A stretch of 64,000 nucleotides of DNA from Malachius bipustulatus (Eukaryota; Arthropoda; Insecta; Coleoptera; Melyridae), in the NCBI GenBank assembly GCA_910589415.1, contig OU342637.1, positions 40,702,162 through 40,766,161 of the forward strand, read 5' to 3'. Under the pieces are notes generated by a model. The model worked only from the letters and a program-made list of their open reading frames with translations, searched no databases and had not been told where the DNA came from. Position 1 is the first letter of the stretch. Each line of letters starts with the position of its first letter. Of this stretch, positions 42,842-58,858 are shown piece by piece. Made by a program: the position numbers and the translations under genes.

Positions 42842-43022
42842 TGCGATGTCTGTTCGTATGGTCACCAATAAAATAATACTCGCTGTATTTAACTTAAAAT
42901 ATATTTATTAATAATTATTTAGACCAAACTGCCTGGTGGCTCGATGTAGAATGAATGCTAAAATACAAACTGAGGTGCTTATCGCTCTGATACCATAATT
43001 ACAAATTATTGGATATACTACA
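42842..43022 (-). repeat. 3' LTR of gypsy-like element B
   Basis: 181 bp, matching the 5' LTR at 49505-49689. Confidence 0.9.
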
Positions 43023-44801: not shown

Positions 44802-46796
44802 CAGCTCGACAAGAATATCTTGGCGGTTGTTAAAGGAGAGAGAGGTCCTAGAACGAGACAGAAAATCACCCCACCACCTTATCTGTTTTAGTACATTCCA
44901 TGTAATAAATTTTGTAAAATTTTGATACTTGACATTTAAATTTTATTATGAACTAGAAGCTAATTTGGCTGCGTTCAATTAATATGAAAAAATGAAAATC
45001 TAAAATAAACACGGGAGTTTTAGTTAGAATTATTTAATTATTACTATCATCAGAAAATATATTTAATTATCACTGATAATTAGCTATCAGTAGCTAATTA
45101 TCTAAGTATATAAGTAGCTATCAGAATAGTTCTCTTCGTCACTATCATTATATCTTCATCGTCGTTAATGCCTCCCAGTTGAATAACTAGATCCCCTACT
45201 ATAATAAACATAGCTCCTTCTCTGGCCATTAACTCGTTCTCAATTTTTTTGTTGGTTGAATGGTCACACTTGGCATTCCACTGCTCAGCCGCGTATAACC
45301 ACAAAAAAACTCGTCACATAAATTCGGTACATTTTCAAACTTTTGGGTGATATTTCTGTCTACCACATAGTCTTAACCAACTTAACCAATACATATCTAT
45401 TTATTTATCTTCCGGTTTGGAAAACACCAGAGTGTACCCACACTTCCCGCAATAGTGACGATCTTCCATCGCAGCCCAAACCAACTCGATAGGATTAGAG
45501 ATCTGGGTGGTAAGGAGGCAGTCGCAAAACATCATGTCTTCTCATAATTTCATCAATTTCGTAGGTTTTGAAATTCGGCTTATTCGATTTGATGAGGTCA
45601 TACAATTCTGGTTTATGGAAATCCGTATTAAATGGTATTTGCTTTTATTGTAACCACTGCTGCATATCTGATTTTCTTGAAGCAGAGTTAGGTGGTTTAT
45701 CTAACTGCACATTATGATATGGCGCGTTATCAATCACAAATACGCTGTGAGGCGGTAAATTTGGTATAAGCTTATTGGTTTCCATCCATTTTTTGTAGTT
45801 GGAATAATTCATATCGTCGTGATAGTCTCCACTCTTCGTCTTCGACTTAAATCGCACGTAAGCATTAGGAATAAAACCAGTTTCTCCACCCGCGTGAATG
45901 ATTACCATCCGTTGTCCTTTGGAGGCGGGTTGCGACAAAACTTCTCCACTGGCGTCGCTCCACGCTTTTTGATGAGCATGAGAAGAATGGATATTTGTTT
46001 CATCCATGTACACTATATTTCTACCTTCGGCTTTATAATTTCTCATCCTTCTAAGAAACTTAAGACGCAAATATCGCACTTCTTGCTTTTCCAACAAAAT
46101 TTTTCTATTAGTTCTTGTTTTCCTCCACCGAAAGCCCAGTTTATGGATAACCTTTCTGACACTTTTCCTTGGTCCATTTGCTCGTTATCTTTTGTAAATT
46201 TTGCAGTGATCCTCTTGAGCGTTGGAGTAATTTTTTCGGTTGTATGAAAACTATGTATAATTCGATGCAGTAAACATTGATCAAAGTCATCCAAGTTGGT
46301 TTTTGTTGCTAATTTAGTTCTTTTTTTACCAGGAGAAGTAAATTTATCCGTTTGGCCATCGATGATTCTGCTTCTTTCCACCACTAGTAGGTATCCTTTG
46401 AGCAGTCCGTTCACTTAATGCCTGTCGCAGCAGCAACCCGTTTTTGAACTTGATTAATTGGTAAAATAGGACCAAGTATTTTTAGATTCACCAAGAAAAT
46501 ATTTATAAACGTTATTAATAATTTCACAGAATTGACCGGAAAGGGTTTTATTAGCAACTTGGCTTTTAAAATTTGCCATTTCAAAAGCTTGCACTACGTT
46601 TGCAATAATAAACTGTCACAAACATAATAAAATATAAACGTCAAGTATCAATGTCAAAACATTGTTCAAAATTTATTATACATCATAATTTATTACATGG
46701 AATGTACTAAAACAGATAAGGTGGTGGGGTGATTTTCTGTCTCGTTCTAGGACCTCTCTCTCTTTTAACAACCGCCAAGATATTCTTGTCGAGCAG
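44802..46796 (-). mobile_element. Second long-spacing DDE transposon, inserted in gypsy-like element B
   Basis: 1995 bp with TA on both sides (44800-44801, 46797-46798). Terminal inverted repeats are about 105 bp, beginning CAGCTCGACAAGAATATCTT on the left and CTGCTCGACAAGAATATCTT (inverse) on the right. Taking it out with one TA brings the RNase H and integrase frames of the host retrotransposon back into register, which proves the borders. Its transposase is broken (next entry). Confidence 0.9.
45440..46584 (-). pseudogene. Broken DD80E-type Tc1/mariner-group transposase
   Basis: Minus strand. It starts near ATG 46581 (MANFKSQVANKTLSGQFCEI), with the N-terminal helix-turn-helix region in several frames (PINQVQKRVAAATGI). 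The catalytic part reads NIVYMDETNIHSSHAHQKAW (first Asp) and VFVIDNAPYHN (second Asp). After a stop at 45645 and a small frame change near the end, LRLPPYHPDL and NPIELVWAAM bring the Glu. About 80 residues separate the second Asp and Glu, so it belongs with the DD82E element at 8866. Several stops and frameshifts make it inactive. Confidence 0.8.
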
Positions 46797-49504: not shown

Positions 49505-49689
49505 TGCGATGTCTGTTCGTATGGTCACCAATAAAATAATACTCGCTGTATTTAACTTAAAATATATTTATTAATAATTATTTAGACCAAACTGCCTGGT
49601 GGCTCGATGTAGAATGAATGCTAAAATACAAACTGAGGTGCTTATCGCTCTGATACCATAATTACAAATTATTGGATATACCTACTACA
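49505..49689 (-). repeat. 5' LTR of gypsy-like element B
   Basis: 185 bp, nearly identical to the other LTR apart from a 4-base difference near the TGTAGTAG end. The high identity implies a fairly recent insertion. Confidence 0.9.
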
Positions 49690-49694
49690 CAAGG

Positions 49695-52213
49695 TGATCT
49701 CAAAAAATCAATTGTTTGCTCTTGAAGTGATAACTTTTTTCCTTGCCGACAGATGTTTGAAATTCTAGCCTCATATTGAAGGTAAATTTATTATATTTAG
49801 CCTCATTAGCTGAAACTTCAGGCAAAAAAAATTCGGGGACGAAACTTGACTCAGGACAAACATTGAAAACAAAAGATTGCATAAAAAATTACTTGAATTC
49901 AATTTTCTTCAATTCTGAAAACAGGTTTTGGGAGGAAATTTCATGAAAATCAAGTTGTCTCCAAACAGAACTGCAATAATTGTGAATACTTTAAGAAATG
50001 GGGTGGTAACAACATTCGAATTACCTACATCTGCCCGTTTTCAGAGGGAATGAGCGCTCTTTCTTACCTGACAATGGTTTGTAGAAATTATTTACAAATT
50101 AAAAAGCATAGAGGGCGGAACTCTTTTCAAACATAGAAAAGAAAGGTGCAGGTGATATCTTATCCATGTAAAGAAAATTTAAACATTTCTGAACGTTTCT
50201 ACCTATACATATATATTTTTATAAGCGATACAAAATTATAAATAATTATAAATAAGGTCCCCCCTGCGCCGCGGGAGTGCGGGGACCTTATCACCGCCAC
50301 TGTAAATAACTCATTTGAAAGGAAATTTGTTCAGCAATTCAGTTTCATTAAGTTTCTATAGGAACCCAGATTGGATATCTCCGCAAAAAATGTAAAATTC
50401 CCAAGACACGACGTAATTTTTGTTTATTGAAAAGAGCTGACTTACAACTGCTCATTACACTCAGTTCCTCACCCCCATTCAACCGGGCGAACCGAATTGG
50501 GCGAAGGATTTTGTTATTCACTAATCCCAGGGGTCAATTGGGCGAGAAACGAGCAACTAGGGGATTATAAGAGATAAGTGAACAGACAAGAAATACATGT
50601 GCGGCCTTGCCTATATCTATAGCAGTGTTGCCAGATTTATTTTCAATAACTGCTACTTGTTTGACACTAAACGGTGGCCAATGAAAAAAGTTTTTTATCA
50701 TTTGCTACATTAAAGGGATTGTTGAATAGTATTAACGAATTATGATTTATTGTTTAGTAACAAAATCATGACCTTGCGTGTTTTCCATATTTTCTACTGA
50801 AAACTCACCATGTTTTTAAATCTAAGCAATTCCAATTCCAAATATCTCTGGAATTTACTACTTCTATCTAATCAATAAAATTTAAAAATTAAACTTCTCT
50901 TTAATAATACACATTTATTTTCAAAACTAAAGCGCATATAAGTATATTAATCAGCCTCTCCCATACAAAAATTGTGTTAATTCTATTATCGCATACCTAG
51001 CTATAGGATAAGGGGATAAGGAATTTTCATATGTTGAAATGATTAATTTTAAATATCGAATCCCCTAATTATTTGACAGAGAAATATTAAATGAATAATT
51101 TTTCAAGAATTAAAACAAAAGTCTTTTCTGCTATATTAATTATTAAGTATGCAATCGTGTGACATATTTTGTCTACAAAAGCTTACGGCAGCTGTTCGCC
51201 GGCGGCATTATAGGTAATGGGTTGCTGCATAAAAAAAAATTTTTGATGGTTAATTCTGTTGAGCGCCACCGAGTTTTTATGGAAAACTCAGAAACCGGAT
51301 TTCATAGGAAATCTATTCACCTGTTGGAAGCAAAAGAAAAACTAAACGTATTCCCAAAAAAAAATGGTTTACTTTATTGACATTTTTTAAATAAATGAAT
51401 AAATGAATAATTATTGAAAGTAAACGAGTACCTCCGGATAATAATATTATTTACATAAAAAAAAATGTTTGATTATCTGAATTAAAAAATTGAATTATTA
51501 TAAAAAAAATGGTATTGTCCCTAAAAAAAACAGCTGTTTTTGGGCTAACAGATATGTAATGACTTTATAACTGATAAAATACCTATATAATCTAATATGA
51601 CTCTACTCTATTAATTTTTCAAAATCTCCACTTCATCACTCTATTACAATCTTTCCTTCATCGATAAAAAAAACAATAATAATAATAAAAATAAACGACC
51701 TTCTCCTATCCGTAGTGTCCAGGGATGGAATGGCGAGGTTTGACTTCTTATTAACTCATACTATTCTGTACAGGAGGGTTGTTTGTCCTTCACACTGACT
51801 GACTTTCCAAAATCCACAACTCCATAATATCCATCATATGACACAACCCATAACGCAATTGTTCGAATATCCATAATACACCCATTGAATTATTGAACAC
51901 CGATTCCAAGGATAAACATAAAGAACAAGAAGAACAAAACGAAATGGAAAGAAAAAAAAAACCCTGAAATAGTACAAAATCGTAAACATAAGAAAAATTG
52001 ACCCACTTGAAAAACTTCAGCGAGATAAATTAAATTTTACTTTTAGAAGAGAGACATCGCTTACCTCTATTGACAGAGGGTTTCCTATTTATCCTTAAAT
52101 GGTGGCAAACAATCAGTAAAATAGATCTCAACTACCTATTATCTGTTCAATAATCGGAATTCACACAAGTCCATGTAAATTACCTCAGATAATTAAAAGT
52201 AATAATTATAAAT
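49695..52213. other. Gene-poor DNA with a short hairpin
   Basis: No recognisable coding sequence. A short hairpin with ATAAGGTCCCC arms and a GC-rich centre lies at about 50251-50293. At 50484-50545 there are two AATTGGGCGA motifs, followed at 50628 by GTTGCCAGATTT. These reappear inverted at 54870-55000 (see findings). Confidence 0.5.
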
Positions 52214-52535
52214 TGTGACGTTACAGTAACGTCGCGACGCTGGAAAGCGACGCCATAATTTGAACAAAATATTATTCCCACGGAAAACGAGAAGAAATCA
52301 TGTAGGAATTATTCAAGTAGTAAATTATTAAAATCCAAGCAGATAAATCGGCGACAACAAGATAAGGGAGGTTTTTTATATTGGTATCAGTTGTTGTTTA
52401 CAGAAAGTGCCTCTAGGAAGGAACGGAAACAACATTTAATTCAGCGAGAAATATTAAAATATTAAATCCAAGCGAATAAATGCGAAGCCGATAGGAAAAC
52501 AAGATAAGAAGTTGTTGTTGTTTACGTCCGGTACC

Positions 52536-52545
52536 TATATAAAGG
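52536..52545 (+). promoter_or_regulatory. TATA box of the solo LTR
   Basis: CTATATAAAGGG about 30 bp before the predicted transcription start (about 52566). It lies 43 bp before the first stem-loop of the array and sets the transcribed strand as plus. Confidence 0.6.
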
Positions 52546-52578
52546 GACCGAGATTGAAGGAACAGCAGCAGATGGCAG

Positions 52579-52999
52579 CTGGCCTTCCTAGAGAACTGAT
52601 CTAGGATAGCCGGTCCGCCATCCATGGCTCACCCCCTTGCCCAGAGGCCCGAGTACTGATCGGGACTTCTCCTAGAGCGAAGAAGAAGAATTGACTCTTC
52701 CAAGCTCGCACCTTAACCTGCCCTAATGCGAAGCCTGGGTACTGACCAGGAGTCAAGTTGGGATAACGCGAGAGAGTAGTATTGATACTCTTTCGTCACC
52801 CCCTAAAGCTTATCAGTCTCGAACGTGGACCCAGGTGACGCGAAGAATTGATTCGCGTCCCTGGTCCAATTACTCTGAGTAAGCGTATCATCCCCCCGTG
52901 ACTTCCTAACGAGTCGAAGTATTGACTCGACGAGTTAGACAGGCACGTAGAAGGTCAACCTTCGGTTGCGAACGAGAATTGACCGTCACGCAATCGAAG
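52579..52999 (+). ncRNA. Array of eight stem-loops with a shared GWAYTGA loop
   Basis: Hairpins at 52579-52613, 52643-52670, 52675-52707, 52722-52762, 52768-52796, 52827-52867, 52906-52938 and 52960-52999. The seven-base loops are GAACTGA, GTACTGA, GAATTGA, GTACTGA, GTATTGA, GAATTGA, GTATTGA and GAATTGA. The stems have unrelated sequences but each is self-complementary (for example CCTAGA/TCTAGG, CCCGA/TCGGG, CCTGG/CCAGG, GACGCGAA/TTCGCGTC). Most have an apical helix of 3-8 bp, a small internal loop, then an outer helix. Three have an A-C mismatch closing the loop. The conserved loop with changing, compensated stems is what structured RNA looks like. Function unknown; possibilities are a Gag or host-protein binding array in the leader RNA. 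Confidence 0.75.
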
Positions 53000-53449
53000 A
53001 CGAACCCAGTCACTCATCAAATAATATAACCCGGGGTCATTTTCACATAGCTAGAATTTTCCCCCGAGCTAATGTAATTTATTAAGTAAATTATTCATTT
53101 AAATAAAAGGGAATTTTTCATAAATTGAGACCATGATAGATTTCATGTAAATAATATTAATCGAGAGTTTTATTCAGTTCATTTCTCATTCTTTTATCGA
53201 CGCGATAAAAATAATAGTAAAATCATTCCGTTCTCGTCTCATATTGCACCACTAACATTTTATTTTCCAGTTGACTGAACTCCGCAGAAAAACTTGTCCT
53301 CCTCGACCTACTGGCGTAGTCCGACCGTCGAGCGGCAGCCAGGGCACTGCTTTTTACCGGGTGCTGGGCCGGGAAGATATACCGGGCGTTCACCCAGCAT
53401 GCTGAACAAATCGACTAATTATTTTACGTTTATCGCAGTTTAAGGAAAC

Positions 53450-53455
53450 AATAAA
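53450..53455 (+). promoter_or_regulatory. Poly(A) signal of the solo LTR
   Basis: AATAAA, followed by a GT-rich stretch (GTCGTGTATTATTTGTGT) about 20 bases later, as expected at the R/U5 border. Confidence 0.55.
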
Positions 53456-53592
53456 TTTACGTTATTTTTTGAAATGTCGTGTATTATTTGTGTAAATCCA
53501 CCCAAATATTCCGTCTGAAGGCATTGGTTAAGAAATAAATTAACCAAATAATTAAGACGTCATCTCCAAAAAAAGGAGAGACGTCACAAAAT

Positions 53593-54150: not shown

Positions 54151-54376
54151 TAATTACACGAGAGCTTATTTTTTATCCGGATAAAGATGCAGTTTTAACG
54201 AAAATTTGTTTTTTATTGGCAATTTAACGAGTCAAATTGTCTGATAAAACGACGAGTCCGAAGGACGAGTCGTTTTATCTGACAATTTGACGAGTTGAAT
54301 TGCCAAAGAAAAAACAAATTTGAGTTTAAAAGTGCATCTTTATCCGGATAAAAAATATAAGCTCGTGTGTAATTTA
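54151..54376. repeat. 226-bp fold-back element
   Basis: Long inverted arms (TAATTACACGAGAGCTTATT, TTTATCCGGATAAAGATGCA, ACAAATTT, AATTTGACGAG) around a centre GACGAGTCCGAAGGACGAGTC. No ORF. The two arms are mirror images except for several substitutions and small indels. Confidence 0.75.
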
Positions 54377-55941
54377 GGGAGATAATTTAACGAATAATAA
54401 TAATTATTAATAAATGACGTTTATTAATTTGTCAATTAATATCACCTTGGTAACTACTTACTTGATTTTGCGTCTAAAAAGCTAGCTTACATTTTATCCA
54501 GATGCAAAGTTAGGGCTAACTTTATCCGATGTCAAAGTGACAAAAACACTATTCCTTATGTCATTTTTAATACATGAGTTAAATTATCAAAGGCAATAGC
54601 TTAGTCAATTGAAAATTATGACAAATTTATGATAAATCAATTCAAGTAATTGATTGCTTTTTATGGATTATTTGAGTAGGTATAGCAGCGACGTTAACTT
54701 TTCTATTAATGTTTCATGTTTCTGCTGTATAGGTATAGTATAAAATAATTGTAAATGCACTAAGGGCTTGATGTATTTGATAGAACTTAAAAAAAAAATA
54801 ATACATCAAGTATTAATATTATTTATTTATTTTTTCAATTTTATTTAATGTAGAAAATCAGAATTTCTGTAAAATCTGGCAACGTAGCCATACAAGAGCA
54901 TGCAAATAACTCAACGGTATTTAAAAATTCCTTCGCCCAATTGAGCTGTAGGATTATAAGCACCCCCGTCGTGTCGAAGGGTCACTCAGGTAATTTCGCC
55001 CAATTGAGAAACGCCGAAACAAATATGACCTTGGCAGACTATCTAGTAATAAATCGAATCATCCAGGCGATAAACCCCTATCTAAACATAATAAAAGCTT
55101 ACGCGGCAGCAGGATATTTTACATTACTAGAAATAGGCATAATCATGTAATTCACGATGTATACGTGAACGGCACTAAGATTGCCAGACTACTCTTGTAC
55201 TTTGTCGATTACACATATGTCACTGTTCTTGATAAAATACATGGTTTTAAATCACTTCGTGTTTAAACTTTAGTGGTCTCACTCCTTGTTTCCAGCAACC
55301 CTTAAATGAAGACAACCTTTTTAAAAAGGTATTTTAAGGACCAAGAAACATAATTATCGAGGTGTACTTATATTTTAAATGGGTAAAAAAATGGCAGCGT
55401 TGTCAGCTCGACGCGAGCAGTGACTCAGGTTCCCTTAAAATAAATATTTTAATAGAAAGGAAAGCGATTCTATTATTAAGTGTTCTCTGTATTAGATTTC
55501 TAGATAAAAATAATTAAAGTTAATGATATACAGAATGGCCAGGTTACAGGTTAATGGAGGAAAAGCTAAAAAAATCCAAGTTGTCAATTGACTGCGATAT
55601 GAAGAAGCAAAGTTGAGGACTAAACTTTTTTATTTTTCAGTACTGAGTAAAAGGGAATCAGGTTATACAAAGAATTAGACGATAATGGTTATTTGATTGG
55701 AAAATCGCTCAAACCTTTACATTTTCTCTTCAATTTTTTTCCAATATCTTATTTTTTTATCAAGATGTACTGATGAAGACGAAGATCATGAACGTATAAT
55801 AAATAAAATGCGCTGCAACAATGATCAAAACTGTCAATAAAAAATCCTCAACTTTTATGTCATTTTCCTAATGTTGACGCGAAAAATGTACACGAATAGT
55901 GATAACACAGATATGGTGTTGATCTTGGGTGAATACCATTA
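54377..55941. other. Gene-poor DNA
   Basis: No recognisable coding sequence. It contains the inverted counterpart (about 54870-55000) of the TTGCCAGATTT and AATTGGGCGA motifs seen at 50484-50645. Confidence 0.4.
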
Positions 55942-56840
55942 GTGGAGCGGAGAGGCTGAAAATATGCACAAAAAATTTTTCGGAGTAGAAAGATATGGGA
56001 CCGGTACCATCATGTTAAGAGATCTTTGGGGCACTAGAATCTCGTTTTACGACAAGCTCCCTTGGTGCTGACAAAAGTTACAGCCCTTTGAATCTCAGAT
56101 TTGTGATTTTTTTTCACGAGTAATAGTATTTTAGAGTAATAGTAATAGAGCAAAGTATTTTTTTTATCCGTCACCGGTTGACATTGGGGACTCTAGTTTT
56201 GTTTTTCCTTTACAGTTATGATCACTGAACGAAATGACGTATTTGAAATGCAAGAAGTTCGTTCAATTTTTAAAATATTCAATGTTTTTGACCGATTAAA
56301 CACACAATTTCTGCAAAGTTGCGACTTTGAACACCTTTAAATTTTTTTTTCACGATATCGATTTCAGTTTTTTTGTTACCATCTGATAAAATGAAGCTTT
56401 GTGAATATTTTATTTCGTATAATAACATGTAGTCGCGTTTCAAAAATAAACTTTCTAGAGCCGTTTATATGAAACCCTGAAGTTGAACAGATATGTTTAG
56501 CATAGAACGGACGGAGTGCGAGTATAGCGCGGCGACGGCTGTTGAACAAGGAACGGCTGAGGATAAGATTGTTACTGCGAGTGTTACTGTTATGTACCTA
56601 TTCAATAATAATTTAGGGACGTTTATTTATTGTAATATTGTTTACGCACAATTGAATCAAAATTGGTTGTTTACGTCTTAGTTATCATGGCGGAAACTAT
56701 GACTTTACGACTAGCGGGCCGTAAAGTAGAGAAAAAGCCCGGCGGGCCGTAAAGTAGAGAAAAAGCCCGGCGATTATGAAACATACTAAGGGATTATATT
56801 ATAAATATAATTAATTATTTGTAATATTAAAATAGTTTCG

Positions 56841-56910
56841 TGGCCCAGCGGGGAATCGAACCCCTGACCTCCTGATTACACGTCAGGTGTGCTTACCACT
56901 ACACCACCCA
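56841..56910 (-). other. tRNA-like sequence with Pol III A and B boxes (copy 1)
   Basis: The minus strand has an A-box-like TGGTGTAGTGGTAAG, an anticodon-like arm CCTGA-CGTGTAA-TCAGG and a perfect B box GGTTCGATTCC. The acceptor stem does not pair properly and base 33 is G instead of the universal U, so it is not a normal tRNA gene. A TTTTT terminator follows at about 56757 on the minus strand. It may be a SINE head or tRNA pseudogene; Pol III transcription is possible. Confidence 0.6.
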
Positions 56911-57236
56911 GGTCACTTACTGTTGCTTTGATCAGATCGGCTATATGAGTTGTTGTTGTTTCTCTCTCTGTGTGAACGAGGAACGAGTGGTCGCTACAGT
57001 TAAAAACACAGTTGGAAACATTCTGGAAAGTAATTCCATCAACCAGAAGTCGCTTCTGAAGAATGTCTCATTGCGAAATTATTACAAGTTGACTTATCGA
57101 TTATATTAATTATTCAACGTCAAACGCTGCTGTCAAATAATTAATTTTAAACGAACGTCAAAAATTATTATTTTATATTAGAAATATTATTGTTATTGTA
57201 TTGATGCAATTGTGCGTAAAACGTTGTACGTACTCT

Positions 57237-58070: not shown

Positions 58071-58182
58071 GGAAAGATTACGCCCTTAGCCGAATAAAGG
58101 CCCTCCGCTGGCGCGTCGGGCCTCAAACTTCGTCCGCGGGCGTAATCTTCTTCCTTCGGCCCTCTGTACGTAAATAACTATT
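58071..58182. repeat. GC-rich hairpin, copy 1
   Basis: Inverted arms CCGAAGGAAAGATTACGCCC and GGGCGTAATCTTCTTCCTTCGG around CCTCCGCTGGCGCGTCGGG. Copy 2 is at 58740-58858. Confidence 0.75.
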
Positions 58183-58351
58183 ACGCACAATTGAATCAAA
58201 ATTGGTTGTTTACGTCTTAGTTACCATGGCGGAAACTATGACTTTACGACTAGCGGGCCGTAAAGTAGAGAAAAAGCCCGGCGATTATGAAACATACTAA
58301 GGGATTATATTATAAATATAATTAATTATTTGTAATATTAAAATAGTTTCG

Positions 58352-58421
58352 TGGCCCAGCGGGGAATCGAACCCCTGACCTCCTGATTACACGTCAGGTG
58401 TGCTTACCACTACACCACCCA
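58352..58421 (-). other. tRNA-like sequence with Pol III A and B boxes (copy 2)
   Basis: Identical to copy 1 over the tRNA-like part, as part of the tandem duplication. Confidence 0.6.
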
Positions 58422-58739
58422 GGTCACTTACTGTTGCTTTGATCAGATCGGCTATATGAGTTGTTGTTTCTCTCTCTGTGTGAACGAGGAACGAGTGGTC
58501 GCTACAGTTAAAAACACAGTTGGAAACATTCTGGAAAGTAATTCCATCAACCAGAAGTCGCTTCTGAAGAATGTCTCATTGCGAAATTAATACAAGTTGA
58601 CTTATCGATTATATTAATTATTCAACGTCAAACGCTGCTGTCAAATAATTAATTTTAAACGAACGTCAAAAATTATTATTTTATATTAGAAATATTATTG
58701 TTATTGTTTTGATGCAATTGTGCGTAAAACGTTGTACGT

Positions 58740-58858
58740 ACCTCTGCCCGAAGGAAAGATTACGCCCTTAGCCGAATAAAGGCCCTCCGCTGGCGCGTCG
58801 GGCCTCAAACTTCGTCCGCGGGCGTAATCTTCTTCCTTCGGCCCTCTGTACGTAAATA
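58740..58858. repeat. GC-rich hairpin, copy 2
   Basis: Same as copy 1, in tandem unit 2. The outer ends carry GTACGTA/TACGTAC. Confidence 0.75.

What the first reader, a model, noticed from the sequence alone, without database searches (positions are those of the whole stretch)
52579..52999. Eight tandem stem-loops with one conserved seven-base loop (GWAYTGA)
Within 421 bp, eight hairpins of unrelated stem sequence all present a loop matching G-A/T-A-C/T-T-G-A. By chance a given 7-mer position fits this pattern about once in 4096 bases, so about 0.1 would be expected here. Stem sequences differ completely between hairpins but remain self-complementary, so the array acts as its own covariation test. 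Three share an A-C mismatch next to the loop, and several share a small symmetric internal loop followed by a second helix. The array begins 43 bp after a TATA box and lies before a poly(A) signal, so it would be in the 5' leader of an LTR-driven RNA. I know no described element with this design. It may be a multivalent protein-binding (packaging, transport or translation) array or a decoy for a host factor.
Basis: partly seen in the sequence, partly recalled or inferred. Interest (0 to 1): 0.9.

Follow-up and report, generated by a model that had tools for sequence, protein, structure and literature searches.

The report
Hairpin arrays in beetle retrotransposon leaders
The RNA of a group of jumping genes in what looks like a beetle genome probably starts with a row of 5-10 small hairpins that all show the same seven-letter loop on unrelated stems, and each family has its own loop, which looks like a row of docking sites for a protein, perhaps the element's own coat protein.

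Summary
The array lies in a solo LTR (window 52214-53588; 8-bp TIR, TSD AAAT) of a Ty3/Gypsy-type element; 40 places scored in the same 544-Mb genome, the window's included, are 95-100% identical to it. One LTR-gag-LTR copy encodes Gag without a detected zinc knuckle and no pol before the next LTR; its PBS and PPT give the strand. Of 16 leaders of relatives located through Gag matches, 15 carry the same design, though LTRs of different families share almost no sequence: autonomous E (loop GNANTGA), B (GAGWTGA), gag-protease C (AHGTTGM). In 18 arrays 134 of 138 loop sites sit on stems; random-genome background is about 16%. Stems differ, loops are uniform within a family, and the array follows a TATA box. 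So selection acts on an RNA with a multivalent, family-specific loop. Best mechanism, inferred: Gag-binding sites for packaging or assembly. Rivals: host export/translation factor, decoy, reverse-transcription role. Multiple-hairpin packaging signals are known in other viruses; ten paper searches and Rfam showed no description of this array.

The parts
52214..53588 (+). Solo LTR, 1375 bp, perfect 8-bp terminal inverted repeat TGTGACGT...ACGTCACA, 4-bp TSD AAAT
   Evidence: same ends in other genomic copies
52214..52564 (+). U3 (end inferred from the TATA box; no TSS data)
52535..52544 (+). TATA box CTATATAAAG
52571..52622 (+). Hairpin 1, loop GAACTGA 52593-52599, A-U closing, three helices
52643..52670 (+). 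Hairpin 2, loop GTACTGA 52653-52659, A-U closing
52675..52707 (+). Hairpin 3, loop GAATTGA 52688-52694, A.C mismatch next to loop, 3x3 internal loop
52722..52762 (+). Hairpin 4, loop GTACTGA 52739-52745, G-C closing, 2x2 internal loops
52768..52796 (+). Hairpin 5, loop GTATTGA 52779-52785, A-U closing, 11-bp stem with two G.U pairs
52826..52868 (+). Hairpin 6, loop GAATTGA 52845-52851, A-U closing
52906..52938 (+). Hairpin 7, loop GTATTGA 52919-52925, A.C mismatch next to loop, GA/GA internal loop
52960..52999 (+). Hairpin 8, loop GAATTGA 52976-52982, A.C mismatch next to loop, 11-bp outer stem
53450..53455 (+). Candidate poly(A) signal AATAAA (another at 53102-53107); if either is used the array lies in R and is present at both RNA ends
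   Evidence: inferred

Best explanation
The array is a selected RNA element at the 5' end of the genomic RNA of a lineage of Ty3/Gypsy-type LTR retrotransposons, in a genome whose best named protein matches are from beetles. Each hairpin presents one 7-nt loop; the stems only hold it up. Five to ten copies per leader make a multivalent docking site for a protein that reads the loop. Most likely this is Gag, whose co-assembly on the array selects the element's own RNA for packaging. The loop (and partly its closing pair) differs by family but is uniform within each, as if the whole array follows a family-specific reader. Shown: predicted structure with covariation, loop conservation, position, strand of the element, spread over families. 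Inferred: transcription, protein binding, Gag as reader, packaging.
For: Array in 15 of 16 leaders located through Gag matches (fetched; scored); 134 of 138 loop sites in 18 arrays on stems against 17/115, 8/47, 33/207 and 64/383 in random genome sequence. LTRs of A, B, C and E share almost no alignable sequence, yet in each the order is TATA, array, PBS. Family-specific loops: B arrays carry no stemmed A-, C- or E-type loops, C arrays none of A, B, E. Gag is the protein by which all the families were found. RNAalifold on five E arrays recovers all eight loops; 9 of 103 pairs have two-sided changes. In family A copies loops vary least (pairwise 0.9%, against 2.5% other hairpin positions and 3.5% linker). 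Multiple hairpins with a common loop motif regulate assembly in HBV (PMC7612645, abstract).
Against: No binding, expression or packaging data. Loop type does not follow Gag similarity: A (Gag 36% identical to E) has E-like loops, while the closer C (about 61%) and B (46-54%) differ. Family A Gag and the C-terminal 176 aa of C show no zinc knuckle, the usual reader in NC, while E has two, so one common reading domain is not obvious. A host factor could do the same, although family-specific loops would then be odd. Copies within a family are 78-99.6% identical and not independent; the covariation energy term is slightly unfavourable (+0.2).
Confidence: 0.5

Rival explanations
1. A host RNA-binding protein (nuclear export, translation or localisation factor) is recruited by the loops; the array is a transport or translation element of the leader.
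For: A and the E-type leaders with arrays share GNANTGA loops despite 36% Gag identity; arrays persist in families without a detected zinc knuckle.
Against: B and C have different loops throughout their arrays, which a constant host factor does not explain unless different factors are used.
Confidence: 0.25
2. Decoy or sponge: the array titrates a host silencing or RNA-decay factor.
For: Multivalency and a uniform loop; the element is a genomic parasite (inference).
Against: A decoy should keep the host factor's site constant across families; loops differ by family.
Confidence: 0.08
3. Role in reverse transcription or polyadenylation because the array probably lies in R: strand transfer, dimerisation by loop-loop contacts, or poly(A)-site use.
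For: Position between TATA and the candidate poly(A) signals.
Against: The loop motifs are not self-complementary, so kissing within the array is not expected (from the sequence); poly(A) use or strand transfer would not need a uniform loop.
Confidence: 0.1
4. Chance, or a by-product of tandem duplication without function.
For: E2 arrays repeat some units (e.g. L253 1833/2026 and 1876/2068), so arrays grow partly by duplication.
Against: After duplication loops should diverge like stems; 36 of 40 inner 5' arms differ while loops are held, and 0 of 5000 arm shuffles reach the observed pairing.
Confidence: 0.02

Closest known systems
Multiple packaging signals of ssRNA viruses and HBV (loop motif RGAG in HBV, PMC7612645 abstract; others in the listing)
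   Same: Several stem-loops with one short loop motif, read by the coat or core protein
   Different: Those are dispersed across the genome; here 5-10 are packed into about 200-450 nt near the RNA 5' end, in LTR retrotransposons, with family-specific loops
Retrotransposon/retrovirus leader packaging regions (Ty1, Ty3; MMTV)
   Same: 5' leader, upstream of PBS and gag, Gag as expected reader
   Different: The Ty1/Ty3 review says the Gag-binding sites are not precisely defined (PMC4974528, passages); the passages I saw describe no hairpin array with a uniform loop. MMTV was seen only as a listing
MAT2A 3'UTR hairpins read by METTL16 (UACAGAGAA; details recalled, papers seen as listing)
   Same: Several hairpins with one loop nonamer in one RNA
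   Different: Different loop, host mRNA 3'UTR, methyltransferase reader; the loop here does not match
CsrB/RsmZ decoy RNAs (recalled, no call)
   Same: Many hairpins with one loop motif that titrate a protein
   Different: Bacterial, GGA loops, free sRNA

Membership tests
Ty3/Gypsy-type LTR retrotransposon (host element) | LTRs with TG..CA ends and 4-6 bp TSD | tested here: met
   TSD seen in L221, L222, L223, L225 and L227
Ty3/Gypsy-type LTR retrotransposon (host element) | PBS after the 5' LTR and PPT before the 3' LTR | tested here: met
   (read by eye; tRNA identity recalled, not tested)
Ty3/Gypsy-type LTR retrotransposon (host element) | Retrotransposon Gag | tested here: met
   PF03732 24.2 bits, cut-off 24.1; homologues 31.9-44.8 bits, with Ty3_capsid below its cut-off
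Ty3/Gypsy-type LTR retrotransposon (host element) | Own pol | tested here: not met
   Family A copy L229 has gag only between two LTRs; relative E has CCHC and protease, and RT by eye, open frames of 1057 aa in many copies. A looks like a non-autonomous member
Gag-read packaging signal | In leader, on the sense strand, structured | tested here: met
   (structure by prediction and covariation only)
Gag-read packaging signal | Gag binds it specifically and it directs packaging | not testable with these tools
   needs protein and RNA
Known Rfam RNA family | covariance-model match | tested here: not met
   no match up to E=5 in the LTR
Simple or coding tandem repeat | repeated unit including stems | tested here: not met
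   no tandem repeat found there; dense viral-contig look-alikes have repeated, near-identical stems, L047 in a collagen-like coding repeat

The most novel reading that the evidence does not exclude
A family-specific loop code: each retrotransposon family marks its RNA with an array of near-identical loops matched to its own Gag. Non-autonomous gag-only or gag-protease families either keep the autonomous type (A) or have switched to private loops (B, C), so the arrays act as barcodes that decide which RNA enters which particle in a genome full of competing relatives.
Probability: 0.3. Interest if true: 0.93.

Novelty: new variant of a known kind. Interest (0 to 1): 0.86.

Why it matters
How LTR retrotransposons pick their own RNA is largely open (the Gag sites in Ty1/Ty3 are not precisely defined, PMC4974528, passages). 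Here the candidate signal is visible from sequence alone, repeated 5-10 times and in several distinct versions in one genome, so specificity can be tested by a simple protein-by-loop binding matrix. It could also show how non-autonomous elements share or escape a helper's particles.

Tried and rejected
DNA-level binding site: arms are unrelated and only the loop is shared, so a duplex site is unlikely. Minus-strand RNA: folding does not decide the strand. Loop-closing pairs fit the minus strand too (A.C becomes G.U), the whole region folds to -171.1 on minus against -161.6 on +, and the generic loop scan scores this array 7 on minus and 6 on +. With limits taken from the + fold the + hairpins sum to -125.8 against -101.7 kcal/mol (my sum, biased by those limits). 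The strand rests on PBS, gag and PPT and on the U.G closings of E. Larger TIR element around the LTR: alignment 141.5 against a shuffle maximum of 131, not convincing. A search with the RT of the window's other gypsy element found nothing. Twenty random pieces of contig C1 held no LTR copy by blastn. Papers: ten searches answered; no title or abstract start in the listings shows such an array. I read passages of PMC4974528 and the abstract of PMC7612645; the others only as listings.

Full report
What is there. The 421 bp hold eight GWAYTGA sites on the + strand. Shuffles give 0.13. Seven of eight have at least 4 of 6 arm pairs; the eighth folds with an internal loop. Stems are unrelated but complementary. 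Without presupposing the motif, seven hairpins share one loop and shuffles reach three. Elsewhere in the 64-kb window, both strands, no 500-nt window has more than 4 hairpins with a shared loop; the array itself scores 6 on + and 7 on minus in that scan.

What it sits in. A search for TG..CA pairs with inverted ends and a TSD gives one clear solution: 52214-53588, 8-bp TIR, TSD AAAT; the next best of nine candidates has a 5-bp TIR. The genome search (544 Mb, 52 contigs) scored 40 of 200 candidates for the array, the window's own included, all 95-100% identical over the full 421 bp. Eight loci were cut out, one of them the window's. Of the other seven, six align from end to end of the LTR and one (L226) from base 40; a 4-bp TSD is visible for the window copy, L222, L223, L225 and L227, while L224 and L228 run into an internal region. 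Several hits come in pairs 2.95-3.09 kb apart. L229 shows one such copy: LTR, PBS, a single 489-aa open frame, PPT, LTR. This locus is a tandem: the second LTR (L228) is followed by a second, nearly identical internal region, with a second gag match at C1:5270256. The two LTRs are 99.93% identical over 1374 bp; that speaks for a recent event, but in a tandem it need not date the insertion. The frame is a Gag (PF03732, just above cut-off) with no zinc knuckle listed at E up to 1, and no pol before the next LTR. The best named homologues of the window's transposase and the named ones of this Gag are beetles (Leptinotarsa, Diabrotica, Sitophilus, Gonioctena; further down one search also spiders, moths and others), so the host is probably a beetle; the record is unnamed.

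Relatives. A search of the genome with this Gag (88 of 1210 candidates scored) gave 90 matches: family A (81-100%), B (46-54%), C (60-64% over the first two thirds), and a distant group E (35-37%). I fetched 16 stretches placed upstream of these Gag matches, picked by Gag match and expected leader position before their sequence was seen; L254 was placed where L249 had shown an array. Fifteen have an array. The miss is L251, which matches B from U5 through the PBS (97% over 337 bp) but is unrelated upstream. Many of the 16 are close copies: B 94-98%, C 97%, E2 96-97%, E 78-99.6%. Five more stretches placed upstream of PR-RT matches gave three with hairpins (L270, L271, and L268, cut off by the stretch end after three sites) and two without (L269, L272, in which no PBS or TGTGACG LTR start was found, so the leader may lie outside).

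The code. Loops: A GWAYTGA; E and E2 GNANTGA; B GAGWTGA; C AHGTTGM. Over 18 arrays (the window included) 134 of 138 family-motif sites inside the array regions have at least 4 of 6 arm positions paired (left out are the partial L268 and L270, the array-less L251, L269 and L272, and the other family A copies). Because of the close copies the fairer sample is the five arrays: 40 sites, 38 stemmed (A 7/8, B 5/5, C 8/8, E1 8/9, E2 10/10), against 17/115, 8/47, 33/207 and 64/383 in 400 kb of random sequence of the same genome (200 kb, both strands). The motifs for B, C and E were written after seeing those arrays, so the site counts are partly circular; the pairing rates, the arm shuffles (0 of 5000) and the loop-cluster scan are less so. 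That scan gives 4-7 in the 15 scanned leaders, a few of these counts including one unrelated loop, and reaches 5 in 1 of 1520 random windows; the leaders were scanned in finer steps (50 against 250 nt), which favours them somewhat. B arrays hold no stemmed A-, C- or E-type loop, C arrays none of A, B, E; E arrays hold A-type loops because A is a subset of E, and one E array (L258) has one stemmed B-type site. Closing pairs are family-specific too: A is A-U, A.C or G-C; E is U.G in 29 of 39; E2 is C-G in 23 of 38; B is G.G, G-C or A-U; C is mixed.

Independent structure evidence. LTRs of A, B, C, E1 and E2 show almost no blastn similarity between families: E1-E2 64% over 217 columns, plus short AT-rich stretches, a 17-nt TATA match and one 15-nt hairpin match. 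RNAalifold on five E arrays, three of them nearly identical, puts each of the eight motif positions in a 7-nt apical loop; 9 of 103 predicted pairs show two-sided changes, though the covariation energy term is slightly unfavourable (+0.2), several pairs are broken in one or two copies, and L260 has one off-motif loop. Among 28 family A arrays (all picked by similarity to the window) loops vary 0.9%, other hairpin positions 2.5%, linkers 3.5%. Loop changes include T-to-A at position 2 of hairpins 5 (2 copies) and 7 (4 copies), inside the motif, and three single copies outside it (GTTCTGA, GCATTGA, one deletion). Against the structure, some stem changes are uncompensated, and the sixth pair of hairpin 6 is C-G in the window and four other copies but A.G in 23 of 28.

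Autonomy. E has two CCHC knuckles, a protease and by eye the start of RT; many copies keep a 1057-aa open frame, three one of 1407-1410 aa (121 of 2842 candidates scored). C has Gag plus protease and then the next LTR, 99.9% identical to its 5' LTR over 912 bp. B was not read beyond its N-terminus; some of its Gag matches run over the full length of A.

How it works (inferred). The same short loop shown many times on arbitrary stems, shortly after the TATA box and upstream of the PBS, is what a multivalent protein-binding leader would look like. Gag is the best candidate because it is the protein the families share and because loops differ by family as whole arrays. Against it, loop type does not track Gag distance, and no zinc knuckle was found in A or in the sequenced end of C. 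Host-factor, decoy and R-region roles remain.

Novelty. Multi-hairpin packaging signals with a loop motif are known for HBV and ssRNA viruses (PMC7612645 abstract; listing). Rfam has no match up to E=5. Ten paper searches returned no listing that describes such arrays in LTR elements; subscription papers and repeat databases were not searched.

Noticed in passing
50618-50936 and 54830-55018: These flanks match three pieces of one short stretch in L219 (3838-4754), so the solo LTR and the fold-back at 54152-54374 seem to lie inside an older repeat.
   Followed up: partly
54152-54374: Fold-back repeat, 227 columns, 85% self-complementary, perhaps a MITE.
   Followed up: no
56642-57233 and 58181-58741: Near-identical direct repeat (pieces 99-100%, about 1.5 kb apart), each copy with a tRNA-Thr(TGT) gene on the minus strand.
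   Followed up: no
42842-43018 and 49505-49681: 100% identical 177-bp repeats flank gypsy-like open frames on the minus strand, with a transposase-like frame (by eye) at 45645-46184 between them: probably recent LTRs with a nested insertion.
   Followed up: no
52336-52430 and 52468-52560: Diverged tandem duplication in U3 with AAGATAAG and TGTTTAC motifs (GATA- and FOX-like by recall), the second copy carrying the TATA box.
   Followed up: no
G000:C1:1844081 and 1849211: Family A array pair 5.13 kb apart instead of about 3.08 kb: a longer internal region or an insertion, not read.
   Followed up: no
L228/L229 (G000:C1:5265701 onward): Tandem LTR-gag-LTR-gag arrangement of family A, as from recombination between LTRs.
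   Followed up: partly
L253 1833-2068: E2 array contains a repeated two-hairpin unit about 193 bp apart, showing growth by segmental duplication.
   Followed up: partly
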